DNA from: Streptomyces cyaneogriseus subsp. noncyanogenus
Lineage (GTDB): Bacteria; Actinomycetota; Actinomycetes; Streptomycetales; Streptomycetaceae
DNA length: 64,000 nucleotides
Direction: 5' to 3'
Assembly (NCBI RefSeq): GCF_000931445.1
Contig: NZ_CP010849.1
Coordinates: 496,001 to 560,000, forward strand
In this document: positions 29,257 to 44,439 of the stretch, piece by piece
How positions within the stretch are numbered: the first letter of the stretch is position 1
Layout of the letters: every line of letters begins with the position of its first letter
Notes under the pieces: model-generated
Database searches by the model: none
Told to the model about the DNA's origin: nothing
What the model saw: only the letters and a program-made list of their open reading frames with translations
Translations under genes and position numbers: made by a program

Positions 29257-30874
29257 GTGCAGCCATCCCGCACGTCCCTTCGTCATCCCTCCCCGGACAC
29301 CCGGCAACTGCGCCGGGTCGCCCTGTCCGGGCTGGTCGGAACCGCCGTAGAGTTCTACGACTTCCTGGTCTACGGCACCGTCGCCGCCCTGGTCTTCGGC
29401 GATCTGTTCTTCCCCGAGGCCGACCCCGCGGTCGGCACCATCGCCGCCTTCGGCACCTTCGCCGCGGGCTATGCGGCCCGCCCGCTCGGCGGCATCGTCT
29501 TCGGCCACTTCGGCGACCAGGTCGGCCGCAAGTCGATGATGCTGCTGACCATGGCCCTGATGGGCTGCGGCAGCTTCCTCATCGGCCTGCTGCCGACCTA
29601 CGAGTCGTATAACTTCGTATAATGTACGCTATACGAAGTTATTACGCCTGGTCTTCGGCGATCTGTTCTTCCCCGAGGCCGACCCCGCGGTCGGCACCAT
29701 CGCCGCCTTCGGCACCTTCGCCGCGGGCTATGCGGCCCGCCCGCTCGGCGGCATCGTCGTCGGCCACTTCGGCGACCAGGTCGGCCGCAAGTCGATGATG
29801 CTGCTGACCATGGCCCTGATGGGCTGCGGCAGCTTCCGCATCGGCCTGCTGCCGGCCTACGAGGCCATCGGCGTGTGGGCCCCGGTCCTGCTCATCGCCC
29901 TGCGCGTCGTCCAGGGCGTGGCCATCGGCGGCGAGTGGGGCGGTGCCACCCTGATGGTCGTCGAACACGCCGAGCGCACCCAGGGCGACCGGCGCGGCCT
30001 GTGGTCCGGCTTCACCCAGCTCGGCGCCCCGCTCGGCTCGGTCCTCTCGGCCGGTGTGGTCACCCTCGTCTCCGCCCTCCCCGACGACGACTTCCGCGCC
30101 TGGGGCTGGCGCGTCCCGTTCCTGCTCAGCATCGTGCTGCTGGCCGTCGGCCTGTTCGTACGCCTGAAGGTCGCCGAGAGCCCGCTGTTCACCCAGGCGC
30201 GGCGGGAGCCGGCGCGCAAGCCGCCGCTGCTGGAGGTGGTGCGCCGGCCCAAGCCCGTCCTGCTGGCCGCCTGCGTCGGCATCGGCGCGTTCACCGCGCA
30301 GTCGCTGCTGACCGGTTTCATGATCTCGTACGCCGTGGACCGGGGCTACAGCCGCCCGCAGGTCCTCACCGCCGTGACCGTCGCCTCCTGTGTCGCGCTC
30401 GCGGTGCTGCCCGCCGCCTCGGCGCTGTCCGACCGGGTCGGCCGCCGCCCCGTCGTCCTGGCCGGCGCCGTCGCCTGCGCCGCCCTCGCCTTCCCCGTCC
30501 TCGCCCTGGTCGACTCCGGCTCCCCCGGCCTGCTGATCCTCGCCCTCGCTCTCGGCCACGGCCTCGCCCAGTCCACGATGTACGGGCCGCTCGGCGCCCT
30601 GCTCACCGAGCTGTTCGGCACCGCGGTGCGCTACACCGGCGCCTCCCTCGGCTACCAGGCGGCCACGCTCATCGGCGCCGGTTTCTCGCCGCTGATCGCC
30701 AGTGGGCTGCTCGCCTCGTACGGCGGTGGCGGCACGCCCGTCGCGCTGCTGCTGTGCGCCGGTGCCGCCGTCACGGCGCTCACCGTGTGGCGCATGCGCG
30801 AGACGCACACCGACCCGCTCGACTCCCCCGCGTCCCGGGCCACCGCCCCCACCCCGGAAGGAACCCCCCGTTGA
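29257..30874 (+). CDS. MHS-family MFS transporter, interrupted by an assembly artefact
   Basis: As written the gene is broken: the first 116 codons run into a linker at 29605 and the rest resumes in another frame. Removing 259 bp (one 217-bp repeat copy plus a 42-bp linker) gives one continuous 452-residue protein with GTG start at 29257 behind AGGGAG. It shows metabolite:H+ symporter features: TAVEFYDFLVYGTVA at helix 1, GGIVFGHFGDQVGRKS in the 2-3 loop and about twelve helices. The first repeat copy (FLIGLLPTY) fits the family better than the second (FRIGLLPAY). It is coupled to the next gene (stop overlaps a TTG start). Substrate unknown, perhaps a carboxylate linked to the divergent operon. 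Confidence 0.8.
29388..29604 (+). repeat. First copy of a 217-bp artefactual duplication
   Basis: This segment is repeated at 29647-29863 with an exact 259-bp offset. Three mismatches were seen (29500, 29579 and 29596 against 29759, 29838 and 29855). The copies flank a 42-bp linker and lie inside one transporter gene. Confidence 0.9.
29605..29646 (+). other. loxP-bearing 42-bp sequencing linker
   Basis: The 42 bp contain two 13-bp loxP arms (ATAACTTCGTATA and its inverse) around spacer ATGTACGC, with outer bases TCGT and TACG. The standard spacer is ATGTATGC, so there is one T-to-C change. The whole 42-mer, outer bases included, otherwise matches the Roche 454 Titanium paired-end circularisation linker as I remember it. 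It separates two copies of the same genomic sequence. Confidence 0.9.
29647..29863 (+). repeat. Second copy of the 217-bp artefactual duplication
   Basis: This repeats 29388-29604. After 29863 the unique sequence of the transporter continues. Its three differences give less typical residues (V for F, R for L, A for T), so it is probably the lower-quality copy. Confidence 0.9.
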
Positions 30875-33547: not shown

Positions 33548-34588
33548 ATGACGACCGTACAGACCGCTCCGGCGCCGTCCATGCGGCTGCGGGAGCTCGT
33601 GTTCGGGGCGGCGTGCGCCGCCGCCCTCCGCGCGGCGGCCCGGCTCGGGGTCGCCGACGCCCTGGACGACAGCCCGCGGGCGGTGGAGGACCTGGCGGCG
33701 GCGGTGAAGACCGAGCCGCAGCCGCTGCGACGACTGCTGCGGGCCCTGTCCTGTCACGGCGTCTTCGCCGAGCAGCCGGACGGGACGTTCGCGCACACCG
33801 ACATGTCCCGGCTGCTGCGCGAGGACGACCCGCACAGTCTGCGCGCCATCACGCTGTGGTGCACCGAGCCGTGGACCTGGGACGCCTGGCCGAAGCTGGA
33901 CGAGGCGGTGCGCACCGGCCGCAACGTGGTGGAGGACCTCTACGGGAAGGAGTTCTTCACCTACCTCAACGAGGACGCCCCGGAGTCGGCCGACGTCTTC
34001 AACCGGGCCATGACGACCTCCAGCGTGCAGTCCGCGCGGGACGTCGCGCGGTTCCTCGACCTCTCGGGGGCCTCCTCGGTCGCCGACATCGGGGGCGGCC
34101 AGGGTCATGTGGTGGCGAGCCTGCTGGAGAAGTACCCCTCGCTCCAGGGGACCCTGCTCGACCTGCCGCGCGTGGTGGAGAACGCCGATGCGCGGCTGCG
34201 GGCGGGAGGCGCGCTCGCGGACCGGGTGCGGATCGTGCCCGGCGACTGCCGGACGGCCGTCCCCGTCAAGGCCGATGTGTACATCATCAAGAACATCCTG
34301 GAGTGGGACGACGACAGCACCGCCCGGACGCTGCGCAACGTCATCGAGGCGGGCGGCCCGGGAACGCGGGTGGTGGTCATCGAGAACCTCGTCGACGACA
34401 CCCCCTCGATGCGGTTCAGCACCGCCATGGACCTGCTGCTCCTCCTCAACGTCGGCGGTGCCAAGCACACCACCGAGAGCATGGTCGGCCGGCTCACCGG
34501 CGCGGGCCTGGTCATCGACGACGTGCGCCCGGTCAATCCGTATCTGCACGCCTTCGACTGCACGGTCCCGGACCACCGCGCCGGCTGA
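33548..34588 (+). CDS. O-methyltransferase (acetylserotonin/aromatic-polyketide type)
   Basis: This 346-residue methyltransferase has an N-terminal winged-helix dimerisation domain (RLGVADALDD..LRRLLRALSCHGVF) and a C-terminal SAM domain with VADIGGGQGHVVASLLEKYP and IIKNILEWDDD. It is the type that methylates phenolic hydroxyls of aromatic polyketides. It converges on the spore-pigment operon, ending 258 bp from the cyclase stop as written (about 40 bp once the artefact is removed), so it may tailor the pigment. ATG follows GAGGAAAGGCGG. The last codons fall in a duplicated segment. Confidence 0.85.
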   Translation: MTTVQTAPAPSMRLRELVFGAACAAALRAAARLGVADALDDSPRAVEDLAAAVKTEPQPLRRLLRALSCHGVFAEQPDGTFAHTDMSRLLREDDPHSLRAITLWCTEPWTWDAWPKLDEAVRTGRNVVEDLYGKEFFTYLNEDAPESADVFNRAMTTSSVQSARDVARFLDLSGASSVADIGGGQGHVVASLLEKYPSLQGTLLDLPRVVENADARLRAGGALADRVRIVPGDCRTAVPVKADVYIIKNILEWDDDSTARTLRNVIEAGGPGTRVVVIENLVDDTPSMRFSTAMDLLLLLNVGGAKHTTESMVGRLTGAGLVIDDVRPVNPYLHAFDCTVPDHRAG

Positions 34589-34751
34589 GAGACGACGGCG
34601 GACGCCGATCGCCGGGCACGCGCGTGGCGCGTGCCCGGCGATCGGCTGGGGAGAGGGGGACGGTTCAGATGATGGCGTCCCGGTCCCAGCGGTAGAAGCA
34701 GTTCGCCATCGCGTCCTTCGGCGAGCGCCAGGTGGCCGGGTCGTAGGCGCT
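34573..34751 (+). repeat. First copy of an artefactual duplication (179 bp, with hairpin)
   Basis: This segment recurs at 34794-34932 with identical sequence except that 40 bp, including the terminator hairpin, are missing from the second copy. It holds the methyltransferase stop, the terminator and the 3' end of the cyclase gene. Confidence 0.9.
34607..34643. terminator. Bidirectional terminator hairpin
   Basis: A perfect inverted repeat with 17-bp arms (GATCGCCGGGCACGCGC and its complement) and a 3-base loop (GTG) lies between the convergent methyltransferase and cyclase genes, where it can stop transcription from both sides. Confidence 0.85.
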
Positions 34752-34793
34752 CGTAATAACTTCGTATAGCATACATTATACGAAGTTATACGA
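34752..34793 (-). other. Second loxP-bearing 42-bp sequencing linker, inverted
   Basis: These 42 bp are the reverse complement of the linker at 29605, here with canonical spacer GCATACAT (ATGTATGC on the other strand) and outer bases CGTA and ACGA. Genomic sequence is duplicated on either side. Read in frame on the minus strand it gives MYAIRSYYE, a peptide I recall as a hallmark of 454 linker carry-over in databases. Confidence 0.92.
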
Positions 34794-34932
34794 CCACCGC
34801 GCCGGCTGAGAGACGACGGCGATCGGCTGGGGAGAGGGGGACGGTTCAGATGATGGCGTCCCGGTCCCAGCGGTAGAAGCAGTTCGCCATCGCGTCCTTC
34901 GGCGAGCGCCAGGTGGCCGGGTCGTAGGCGCT
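34794..34932 (+). repeat. Second copy of the duplication (139 bp, hairpin lost)
   Basis: This is identical to 34573-34751 apart from a 40-bp deletion whose ends share the microhomology CGGCG, exactly removing the terminator stem-loop. Unique sequence resumes at 34933. Confidence 0.88.
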
Positions 34933-35178
34933 GACGTACGCCGACAGACGCTCGCTGACGTCCTGGAACTCCGGGTGCCCGGCCATCTTGGCGATGGCGG
35001 GTCCGGGGTCCTGCTCGGACTCGATGAGGTGCAGGTACACATCACCGAACTGGAACAGACTGCGCCCGGAGACCCCGATGAGGTGCGGGAGTTCCCCCCG
35101 GTCCGACTCCGCGAACACCTTGGCGATGTCCTGGGCCGAACCCGGGGCCATCCGGGCGACGATCAACGTGTGGTGCAT
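34846..35178 (-). CDS. whiE-ORFVII: Polyketide cyclase, TcmI family (spore pigment)
   Basis: This 110-residue protein resembles the ferredoxin-like-fold TcmI cyclases, which close later rings of aromatic polyketides. Family traits are TLIVARMAPGSAQDIAKVF at the N-terminus and the terminal FYRWD motif. It is the last gene of the KS-CLF-ACP-aromatase operon and corresponds to whiE ORFVII of the spore pigment locus by order and size. Its 3' end also appears, displaced, in the first copy of the artefactual duplication. Confidence 0.87.
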   Translation of the reverse strand: MHHTLIVARMAPGSAQDIAKVFAESDRGELPHLIGVSGRSLFQFGDVYLHLIESEQDPGPAIAKMAGHPEFQDVSERLSAYVSAYDPATWRSPKDAMANCFYRWDRDAII

Positions 35179-35200
35179 GGTGGTGTGCTCCGTCCCGCGC

Positions 35201-35939
<739 letters not shown>

Positions 35940-35966
35940 GTGCTTTCTCCTTTGCTCTGTGCCGTC

Positions 35967-37220
35967 TCACTGCACGGCGCCGGCGGTGCCGCGTCGCAGC
36001 ACCAGCGCCGAGTTCGACCCCATCAGCCCTCGGCTGAGGACGAGCGCCGTGCGCAGCTCGGCGGCACGGGCCCGGCCGGTCACCAGATCGAGGTCGTGGC
36101 AGATGTCGAACACATTGGGGGTGGGCGGGATGACTCCCTGTTCCATCGCGAGCACCGCCGCCGCGGCGTCCAGCACCGGCGCGGCGCAGTAGCCCCGGCC
36201 GACGCCGGTCTTGGGGGCGGTGACGGGCACCCGCCGGCCGTGCGCGCCGAGGGCGTCCGCGATGGCCAGTGCCTCGGCACGGTCCGCCTCGGGCACGCCG
36301 AGGGCGTCCGCGAAGACCACGTCGATCTCCTCGGGGGCCAGGCCGGCCTCGTCCAGGGCGCCCCGGACGGCCTGGGCGAGCCCGTGCCTGGACTCCTCCC
36401 AGCGGGAGGCCCCGGTGAAGGTCGCCGCGTGTCCGGCGAGGACGCCCCGCACCTGCGCGCCCCGGTCCAGCGCCGAGTCCTCGTCTTCCACGACGAGCAT
36501 GGCGCCGCCCTCGGCGGGCACGAACCCGCACGCCGCCGAGGTGAAGGGGCGGTAGGCACGCGCCGGGTCGTCGGCCGTGCTCAGTTCCCCGTAGCCGAGC
36601 TGGCAGACCACCGAGTAGGGGGCCAGCGGGGCCTCGGTCGAGCCGGTCACGATCACCTCGGTGCCGCGCCGGACCGCCCGCGCGGCGTGCGCGAGGGCGT
36701 CCAGGCCGCCGGCCTCGTCGGCGGCGACCACGCCGCAGGGGCCCTTGAAGCCCCGGCGGATGGAGATCTGGCCGGTGCTGGCGGCGTAGAACCAGGCGAT
36801 CGACTGGTAGGGGCCGACGAAGCGGCTGCCCTTTCCCCAGAGCTGCTGCAGCTCCCGCTGCCCGAACTCGCCGCCGCCCGAGCCGGCCGCGGTGACGACA
36901 CCGACGGAGAACGGCGAGCCGTCGGTGTCGCTCCGGGGCAGGCGGGCGTCGTCGAGCGCGAGGTCGGCGGCGGTCATCGCGAAGTGCGTGAACCGGTCGG
37001 TCTGGACCAGGAAACGCTCCTCGACCGCCGCCGACGGGTCGAACTCCCGGATCTGGCCGGCGACCCGCAGCGGCAGGTGCTCGCACCCCTCGCGGGTGAC
37101 CCGGTCCAGGACGCTGAGCCCTTCCTTGGTGGACTTCCAGAAGGTCTCGGTGGTGGTTCCGTTGGGCGCGACCACGCCGATTCCGGTGATGGCCGCGCGC
37201 CGTGGATGCGGTTCGCTCAT
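35967..37220 (-). CDS. whiE-ORFIV: Ketosynthase chain-length factor (KS-beta)
   Basis: This 417-residue KS homologue lacks the active-site cysteine: the segment aligning with KS-alpha TGCTSGLDS reads ADEAGGLDA, placing Glu169 where chain-length factors usually carry Gln. It forms the heterodimer with KS-alpha and sets chain length. ATG overlaps the KS-alpha stop (4 bp), so the pair is translationally coupled. Order and neighbours match whiE ORFIV. Confidence 0.93.
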
Positions 37221-41120: not shown

Positions 41121-41768
41121 TCAGCCCGCGCTCTCGGCCGTCTTCCTACGGCGCACCGCGTACAGACCGGCTCCGGCGACGGCCAGGGCGGCCATCCCGC
41201 CCGCGGTCACCGACGGTGCGGCCAGGGCGCCGCCACCGGTGTGCATCCCTCCGCGGGGCTTCTCGTGGCCACCGTTCCAGGAGCCCGATCCGTGCTCGCT
41301 GTCCTTGCCACCGCCGTGCTCGCTGTCCTTGTAGCCCGAGGAGCGGTCGCTGTCCTTCTGGGAGCCCGAGTCGTGCTGCCCGGAGTCCCGGCCGGAGCCC
41401 CAGTCGCCCTCGTTCACCGCGGCCAGCGCGCCGCCGCCGGTGCGCATGCCGCCGCGCGGGGAGTCGTACGAGTCGTCCTTGCCGTGGTCCCGGCCGTTGT
41501 CCTTGCCGTACTCCTTGTCGTTCTCGTCGCCGTTGTCCTTGCCGTGCTCCTTGCTGTTCTCGTCGCCGTTGTCCTTGCCGTACTCCTTGCTGTTCTCGTC
41601 GCCGTTGTCCTTGCCGTACTCGGCGCCCTCCTTGTCGTGTCCCTTGTCGTGTTCCTGGCTGTAGGAGGTGTCCTCGTGGTCGGAGCCGGAGGCGAAGGCG
41701 CCGGGAGCACCGAGAGCGAGGGCGGCCGAAGCCGCTCCAGCGGCCAGCAGCATGCGAGCAGAGCGCAT
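41121..41768 (-). CDS. Secreted repeat protein with anchor-like C-terminus, probable sortase substrate
   Basis: This 215-residue protein has a signal peptide (residues 1-26), three and a half 12-residue acidic repeats (GKDNGDENSKEY and variants) and a second Asp/Ser/Gly-rich stretch. A C-terminal hydrophobic helix (TAGGMAALAVAGAGLYAV) is followed by RRRKTAESAG. The helix is preceded by PRGGMHTGGGALAA; a sister motif PRGGMRTGGGALAA occurs mid-protein. No LPXTG or LAXTG is present. It lies 120 bp upstream of the sortase gene in the same direction. Probably wall-displayed in aerial hyphae or spores; function unknown. Confidence 0.75.
   Translation of the reverse strand: MRSARMLLAAGAASAALALGAPGAFASGSDHEDTSYSQEHDKGHDKEGAEYGKDNGDENSKEYGKDNGDENSKEHGKDNGDENDKEYGKDNGRDHGKDDSYDSPRGGMRTGGGALAAVNEGDWGSGRDSGQHDSGSQKDSDRSSGYKDSEHGGGKDSEHGSGSWNGGHEKPRGGMHTGGGALAAPSVTAGGMAALAVAGAGLYAVRRRKTAESAG
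41497..41622 (-). repeat. 36-bp tandem repeat inside the surface protein gene
   Basis: Three full copies (41497-41532, 41533-41568, 41569-41604) and part of a fourth of a 36-bp unit encode the GKDNGDENSKE(Y/H) repeats. Copies differ at only one to three positions, suggesting recent expansion and length variability. Confidence 0.85.
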
Positions 41769-43739: not shown

Positions 43740-44439
43740 CACTCGCCTCCAGGCGTGTCGGGTCCGAGGATGCGGCCGGATACGGCCGGGACCACCATGC
43801 ATGCCCGGCGAGGGGGACGACGGCCCAGTCTTCACCCGCTTAACCCGCGCGGTTCGCCGTGTCGGCGGGCCGGACCCGGCCGGCCGGCCCGGGCTCCCCG
43901 TGCCGAGGGGGCGCACCGCACGCCGCGCCTGCGTGGGTGTCAGTTCGAGTGCCGGGGCCCGCCGTGGCCTCCTGCACGGTCTGTCCGTGGCCCGCCCCCG
44001 GCTCGGCCCGGCGGCACCGGCTCGGGAGGCGGCAGCCACCCGGTAGGCCGTTCGGCGGGTTCCCGCGAGGGGACTCGGTGGCGCTCGCCCGGGCCGCCTG
44101 GGTCGGCCTCCCCGCGAGCAGCCGGGCGGGGCGTCGCCGAAGAGCGAGCGGCCGGTCGGCAGCGGGGAGCCGCCCCGGCGCCCGGCCGGGCGCCGGGGCG
44201 GACGAGCGGCCTCACCGACGCCCTCCGGTACGCGGAGCCCGGCGCCCTCCTGGCGGGCGGGCCCCGCACGTCGACGGCGGCCGGGCGCGGGAGCGGCGCG
44301 TCGAGACCGGTGCGCGCCCGTCGCCGGTGAGCGCGGACCGGTTTCCCCCCGGCCGGCGTGGCGCCGTCCGGCGCCGTGCCTCGGGGCACACCGTCGGGCG
44401 GCGACCTCGACAGGTCAACTCACCCACGGTGTCAGCCGG
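43740..44439. other. 700-bp region without recognisable gene
   Basis: This is a very GC-rich gap between the hydroxylase and the acetyltransferase. Long frames exist on several strands but codon use is compositional, and none has a credible start or domain. The upstream promoter of the hydroxylase must lie at its left end. Confidence 0.45.

What the first reader, a model, noticed from the sequence alone, without database searches (positions are those of the whole stretch)
29388..29863. A 42-bp loxP-containing linker splits a transporter gene between two copies of the same 217 bp
Seen: arms ATAACTTCGTATA and inverse around ATGTACGC, outer bases TCGT and TACG, flanked by 217-bp copies with an exact 259-bp offset and three mismatches. 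Deleting 259 bp restores one in-frame 452-residue gene. Known (from memory): Roche 454 Titanium paired-end libraries use a 42-bp loxP linker with these outer bases. Inference: this is an untrimmed library linker that the assembler kept, not biology. The transporter is intact in the organism.
Basis: partly seen in the sequence, partly recalled or inferred. Interest (0 to 1): 0.85.

Follow-up and report, generated by a model that had tools for sequence, protein, structure and literature searches.

The report
Untrimmed sequencing-library linker in assembly
A synthetic loxP linker from a DNA-sequencing library kit was left in this public bacterial genome, where it falsely splits a transporter gene; it is a data artefact that recurs hundreds of times in the same genome, not biology.

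Summary
A 42-bp loxP linker sits at 29605-29646 between two 217-bp copies (29388-29604, 29647-29863; 3 mismatches, offset 259). It differs by one base (29627) from the Roche-protocol circularisation adaptor printed in PMC5199103. The 7.76-Mb one-contig genome holds 342 lox sites at up to 3 mismatches, 173 in the exact TCGT...TACG frame. Of 199 same-genus genomes searched, only this one has an exact-arm site. All 32 isolated linkers examined lie between direct copies of 86-367 bp that abut the linker on both sides; 0 of 2000 random places do. The same linker frame occurs in nine other organisms; 68 of 77 lox sites in viral contigs have P1-type flanks, none of those with a duplication. The closest ortholog of the transporter carries the 217 bp once. 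Best reading: short library molecules circularised through the linker were read untrimmed and built into the assembly. Errors look more Illumina-like than 454-like, so the platform is open. Not a real feature.

The parts
29388..29604 (+). left copy of the 217-bp direct duplication, the one that fits the orthologs, inside the MFS transporter gene
   Evidence: 13 against 16 mismatches to L218, 21 against 24 to L220, 30 against 33 to L219 for left against right copy
29605..29646 (+). 42-bp loxP circularisation linker, one substitution (29627) from the printed adaptor
29647..29863 (+). right copy of the duplication, with the three deviating bases
29257..29604 (+). 5' piece of a metabolite/H+ symporter-type MFS gene (TIGR00883 profile positions 1-89; below the curated cut-off, as expected of a piece)
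29648..30874 (+). 3' piece of the same gene (TIGR00883 profile positions 18-396; PF07690); overlaps the 5' piece by the duplication
34573..34751 (+). left copy (179 bp) of the duplication at the second linker, containing a 43-nt near-perfect hairpin at 34604-34646
34752..34793 (-). second linker, exact match to the printed adaptor, reverse orientation
34794..34932 (+). right copy (139 bp) of the duplication at the second linker, 40 nt shorter because most of the hairpin is missing; continues into an uninterrupted polyketide cyclase gene (34846-35178, minus strand)

Best explanation
This is an untrimmed library linker kept in the assembly (the confidence given is for this). Mechanism thought most likely, about 0.7 within it: in a Cre/loxP mate-pair library, DNA fragments carrying a loxP linker at each end are circularised by Cre, so that reads cross fragment right end, one 42-bp linker, fragment left end. 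Here the molecules were short (about 86-367 bp, or small concatemers) instead of kilobases. Junction reads, not trimmed, were used to build or close the assembly, which therefore writes the fragment, the linker and the fragment again; very short circles were unrolled into tandem arrays. Shown: linker identity, genome-wide recurrence, the duplication signature in the sites examined. Inferred: the short-circle step and the use of such reads in assembly or gap closing.
For: Linker identical (second site) or one base off (first) to the adaptor printed in PMC5199103; protocol with 42-bp loxP linkers in PMC6992861. 342 sites at up to 3 mismatches, 238 with exact arms, 173 in the exact 42-bp frame, 97 forward and 76 reverse. 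Of 199 same-genus genomes only this one has an exact-arm site. 32 of 32 isolated linkers examined abut a direct duplication on both sides, 30 of 32 of equal length; control 0 of 2000 random places. Of 47 clusters with several linkers, 25 share sequence between their outer flanks. In 8 of 12 evenly spaced arrays every unit is identical, some with a private error in all copies, e.g. 11 copies of 134 bp with spacer CTGTATGC. Nine other organisms carry the linker frame (80 listed of 111 stretches).
Against: The duplication signature is not general: at 141 linker sites in 111 stretches of other genomes, 108 show none, 9 one-sided, 5 two-sided, 19 lie too near a stretch end to test. 22 of 47 multi-linker clusters here share no 20-mer between outer flanks. 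4 of 12 arrays have two distinct units. A region that authors corrected by PCR in what I infer is this strain has no linker in the stretch examined, so that correction is no direct test. No reads were available.
Confidence: 0.98

Rival explanations
1. Same artefact by another step: two contigs whose ends overlap by 86-367 bp each carry a linker tail from mate-pair reads, and the scaffolder joined them through the linker without seeing the overlap. (The 0.3 is a share within the artefact reading, not added to it.)
For: Predicts the same abutting duplication and fits joins with several linkers and foreign bits between overlapping flanks.
Against: Does not readily explain identical tandem units with a shared error; gaps between contigs should not always be overlaps, yet 32 of 32 isolated sites examined are.
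Confidence: 0.3
2. Deliberate Cre/lox engineering of the strain left lox scars.
For: The site has two intact lox arms.
Against: 342 sites at up to 3 mismatches, with duplications, arrays and mutated arms; the outer bases match a library adaptor. Cre acting on hundreds of sites would be expected to rearrange the genome (general knowledge of Cre). No search for a cre gene was made.
Confidence: 0.003
3. A natural P1-type loxP, or a mobile loxP element that duplicates its target.
For: Natural loxP exists: 75 stretches of viral contigs hold lox sites.
Against: 68 of those 77 sites have P1-type flanks unlike TCGT...TACG; target duplications of mobile elements have a nearly constant, short length (general knowledge), here 86-367 bp; exact-arm sites absent from the other 198 same-genus genomes searched.
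Confidence: 0.005

Closest known systems
Roche-protocol loxP circularisation adaptor (the 454 Titanium paired-end linker; that name for this very sequence is recalled)
   Same: 42 bp, TCGT-loxP-TACG, both orientations; second site exact, first site one substitution; 42-bp loxP linkers in the 454 Titanium protocol
   Different: Library and platform of this assembly unknown; error types suggest Illumina reads of such a library (attribution recalled)
Natural loxP of P1-like phages
   Same: 13-bp arms and, in the commonest contexts, the same spacer
   Different: Flanks differ; none of the 68 P1-like sites tested has a flanking duplication
Linker remnants in other public genomes (e.g. Candidatus Paracaedibacter symbiosus, Gemmata sp. 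IIL30, Kitasatospora cheerisanensis)
   Same: Same 42-bp frame
   Different: Mostly without the flanking duplication; 64 of 141 sites lie within 200 bases of the end of the stretch held, which is not always a contig end

Membership tests
Roche-protocol loxP circularisation linker | 42-bp sequence identity | tested here: met
   34752-34793 exact; 29605-29646 41 of 42
Roche-protocol loxP circularisation linker | Occurs in both orientations, scattered over the assembly | tested here: met
   97 forward, 76 reverse exact frames
Roche-protocol loxP circularisation linker | Occurs in unrelated assemblies with the same outer bases | tested here: met
   9 other organisms in the 80 listed of 111 stretches
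Roche-protocol loxP circularisation linker | Joins the two ends of one fragment | tested here: met
   pattern expected of it at 32 of 32 isolated sites examined; not general in other genomes, and the rival contig-overlap step gives the same pattern
Roche-protocol loxP circularisation linker | A Cre/loxP mate-pair library was made from this strain | not testable with these tools
   no read archive; the 2015 genome paper of the inferred strain was seen only as a reference
P1-type natural loxP | P1-type flanks around the site | tested here: not met
   window flanks against viral contexts
Transposable element with target duplication | Near-constant duplication length | tested here: not met
   86-367 bp
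Engineered Cre/lox scar | One or few sites at designed loci | tested here: not met
   342 sites at up to 3 mismatches

The most novel reading that the evidence does not exclude
The sites are really in the chromosome: a loxP-like sequence has spread to hundreds of places in one Streptomyces-like bacterium with duplication of 86-367 bp at each insertion, by an unknown recombinase-driven process.
Probability: 0.003. Interest if true: 0.95.

Novelty: not a real feature. Interest (0 to 1): 0.1.

Why it matters
It matters for data quality, not biology. A one-contig public genome, rated 100% complete by the search tool, holds 342 lox sites that look linker-derived. Those examined split or duplicate sequence and make false tandem arrays, some of them in a region of very long PKS-like frames just beyond this window. 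Anyone reading gene content, pseudogenes or repeats from it would be misled; a scan for the 42-mer would flag this and other genomes.

Tried and rejected
Natural loxP, engineered Cre/lox and a mobile element were considered and rejected (see rivals). I looked for a broken essential gene as extra proof and dropped the argument: the acetolactate synthase gene split at contig position 184795 has a full-length relative at 5.52 Mb, and the uracil-DNA glycosylase family has five matches, the one beside a linker included. Of 20 gene pieces beside isolated linkers run against NCBIfam, 10 matched nothing at 1e-15; a 3-dehydroquinate synthase-like piece (2809622) was not followed up.

Strain identity: I recalled the length 7,762,396 as that of Streptomyces cyaneogriseus ssp. 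noncyanogenus NMWT1; a text search for the bare digits listed 20 of 32 papers, none on this organism. Supporting but not proving: the only acyl-CoA oxidase family match in the genome lies at about 245 kb, and very long PKS-like frames start near 559.5 kb (PKS judged by eye, no profile run), against 'about 310 kb upstream of the nem cluster' in PMC7670052 (one section read). The stretch I take for that paper's PCR-corrected region holds no linker (L290). Paper searches touching linker contamination and the platform of that strain gave listings only and nothing specific among the 20 titles shown each time. Passages of PMC3253782 describe a related Cre-LoxP method but do not print the linker. The second linker could not be compared with relative G009, whose similarity ends before it. 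On rechecking, I found that the three viral lox sites with a duplication are not P1-like: two have the linker frame and one lies beside them.

Full report
Observation. The 42-mer at 29605-29646, the two 217-bp copies at offset 259 and the three mismatches are as described. No match was seen in 100 shuffles of the window. The frame from GTG 29257 runs into a stop inside the linker. With one copy and the linker left out, the frame is 452 codons plus stop, whichever copy is kept.

What was missed. A second linker, an exact match in reverse orientation, lies at 34752-34793. It sits between a 179-bp left copy and a 139-bp right copy; the right one lacks 40 nt of a 43-nt hairpin (hairpin of the stretch 34600-34650 at -32.8 kcal/mol as DNA, z -8.8). 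The neighbouring polyketide cyclase gene (34846-35178, PF04673) is uninterrupted.

Identity of the linker. PMC5199103 (passages read) prints both orientations of the 42-mer as adapter sequences of mate-pair libraries that were made with a Roche circularisation adaptor and Cre by the Roche 454 protocol, and were sequenced on Illumina. PMC6992861 (passages read) describes 42-bp loxP linkers for 454 Titanium paired ends; the passages do not print the sequence. The first linker differs from the printed one at one base (29627), the second at none.

Genome-wide. The window is C1:496001-560000 of a one-contig genome of 7,762,396 bases. It has 342 lox sites at up to 3 mismatches, 238 with exact arms, and 173 in the exact 42-bp frame (72+60, 25+16). 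Of 199 same-genus genomes searched, this one included, only this one has an exact-arm site.

Duplication signature. I examined 75 stretches of this genome holding 260 sites in 79 clusters. They were taken from the places listed. The lists stop at 100 places, and three listed places (7030718, 7034096, 7319694) were not fetched, so this is a part of the 342. All 32 isolated linkers in them have a direct copy that ends at the linker on the left and begins at it on the right, 86-367 bp long; 30 of 32 are equal in length on both sides. Of 2000 random places in the same stretches, none does. Among 47 clusters with several linkers, 25 share at least one 20-mer between their outer 700-bp flanks and 22 do not; in 23 of the 25 the left copy ends at the first linker (no random control was run for this looser test). 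Of 12 evenly spaced arrays of three or more, 8 consist of one identical unit and 4 of two; in some, all copies share a private error (11 copies of 134 bp, 10 of 63 bp), as expected if one small circle was unrolled.

Errors. The 30 equal-length pairs hold 59 mismatches in 4566 bases, 38 of them A/C or G/T. Linker substitutions, counted once per variant and cluster, are A to C or T to G in 24 of 46. Allowing up to 5 edits with indels, 28 of 209 linker places have an indel, but these are only 4 variants, 26 of the 28 places being two variants (17 and 9 places) that I take for junctions inside tandem arrays. This substitution-rich pattern is, from recalled knowledge, more Illumina-like than 454-like, so I do not take the 454 platform as shown.

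Transporter. The two pieces match metabolite/H+ symporter-type MFS profiles (TIGR00883, both below its whole-protein cut-off; the right piece also PF07690 over its cut-off). In the closest relative found among 20 (88% identity over the right-hand ORF) the pieces map to one continuous gene, overlapping by just the duplicated stretch, and the left copy has three fewer mismatches than the right copy to each of L218, L219 and L220. So at all three positions the right copy deviates. DNA alignment with that relative covers the gene on both sides of the linker.

Comparison. In other public genomes the linker frame was found in 111 stretches; the 80 listed belong to nine organisms of several phyla. 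There the duplication signature is mostly absent (of 141 sites 108 none, 9 one-sided, 5 two-sided, 19 untestable at stretch ends), so it reflects how this particular assembly was made. Of 77 lox sites in the 75 viral stretches, 68 have P1-type flanks and none of these a duplication; 5 have the linker frame (L163 twice, L201, L203, L211), 2 of them with a one-sided repeat; 4 are other, 1 of them with repeats.

Strain. By inference only, this is Streptomyces cyaneogriseus ssp. noncyanogenus NMWT1: recalled length, plus the genome's only acyl-CoA oxidase family match about 314 kb before very long PKS-like frames, against about 310 kb in PMC7670052. That paper reports that a region of the published genome had to be corrected by PCR; the stretch here that I take for it has no linker, so it speaks for assembly errors in general, not for this one.

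Verdict. An assembly artefact from an untrimmed Cre/loxP library linker; the transporter is most likely a normal, single, intact gene. Interest low except for database curation.

Noticed in passing
   Followed up: yes
34604-34646: 43-nt near-perfect hairpin between convergent O-methyltransferase and polyketide cyclase genes, present in the left copy and mostly missing from the right copy of the second duplication; perhaps a terminator.
   Followed up: partly
34846-37220: Genes for two polyketide cyclases and a ketosynthase (Pfam), looking like part of an aromatic (type II) polyketide cluster.
   Followed up: no
41493-41621: Imperfect direct repeats at 36-bp offset inside an open frame; no lox site there.
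   Followed up: no
44170-44201: Perfect 32-bp palindrome.
   Followed up: no
L291-L294 (contig 559555-635999): Very long PKS-like frames begin just before the window's end; linkers and linker arrays appear in this region from about 601 kb on.
   Followed up: partly
L031-L141: The same linker frame remains in other public genomes, e.g. Candidatus Paracaedibacter symbiosus, Legionella tunisiensis, Gemmata sp. IIL30, Kitasatospora cheerisanensis, Litoribacter populi.
   Followed up: partly
L163, L201, L203, L211: Four viral contigs hold lox sites with the linker's outer bases instead of phage flanks, so they too look contaminated.
   Followed up: partly
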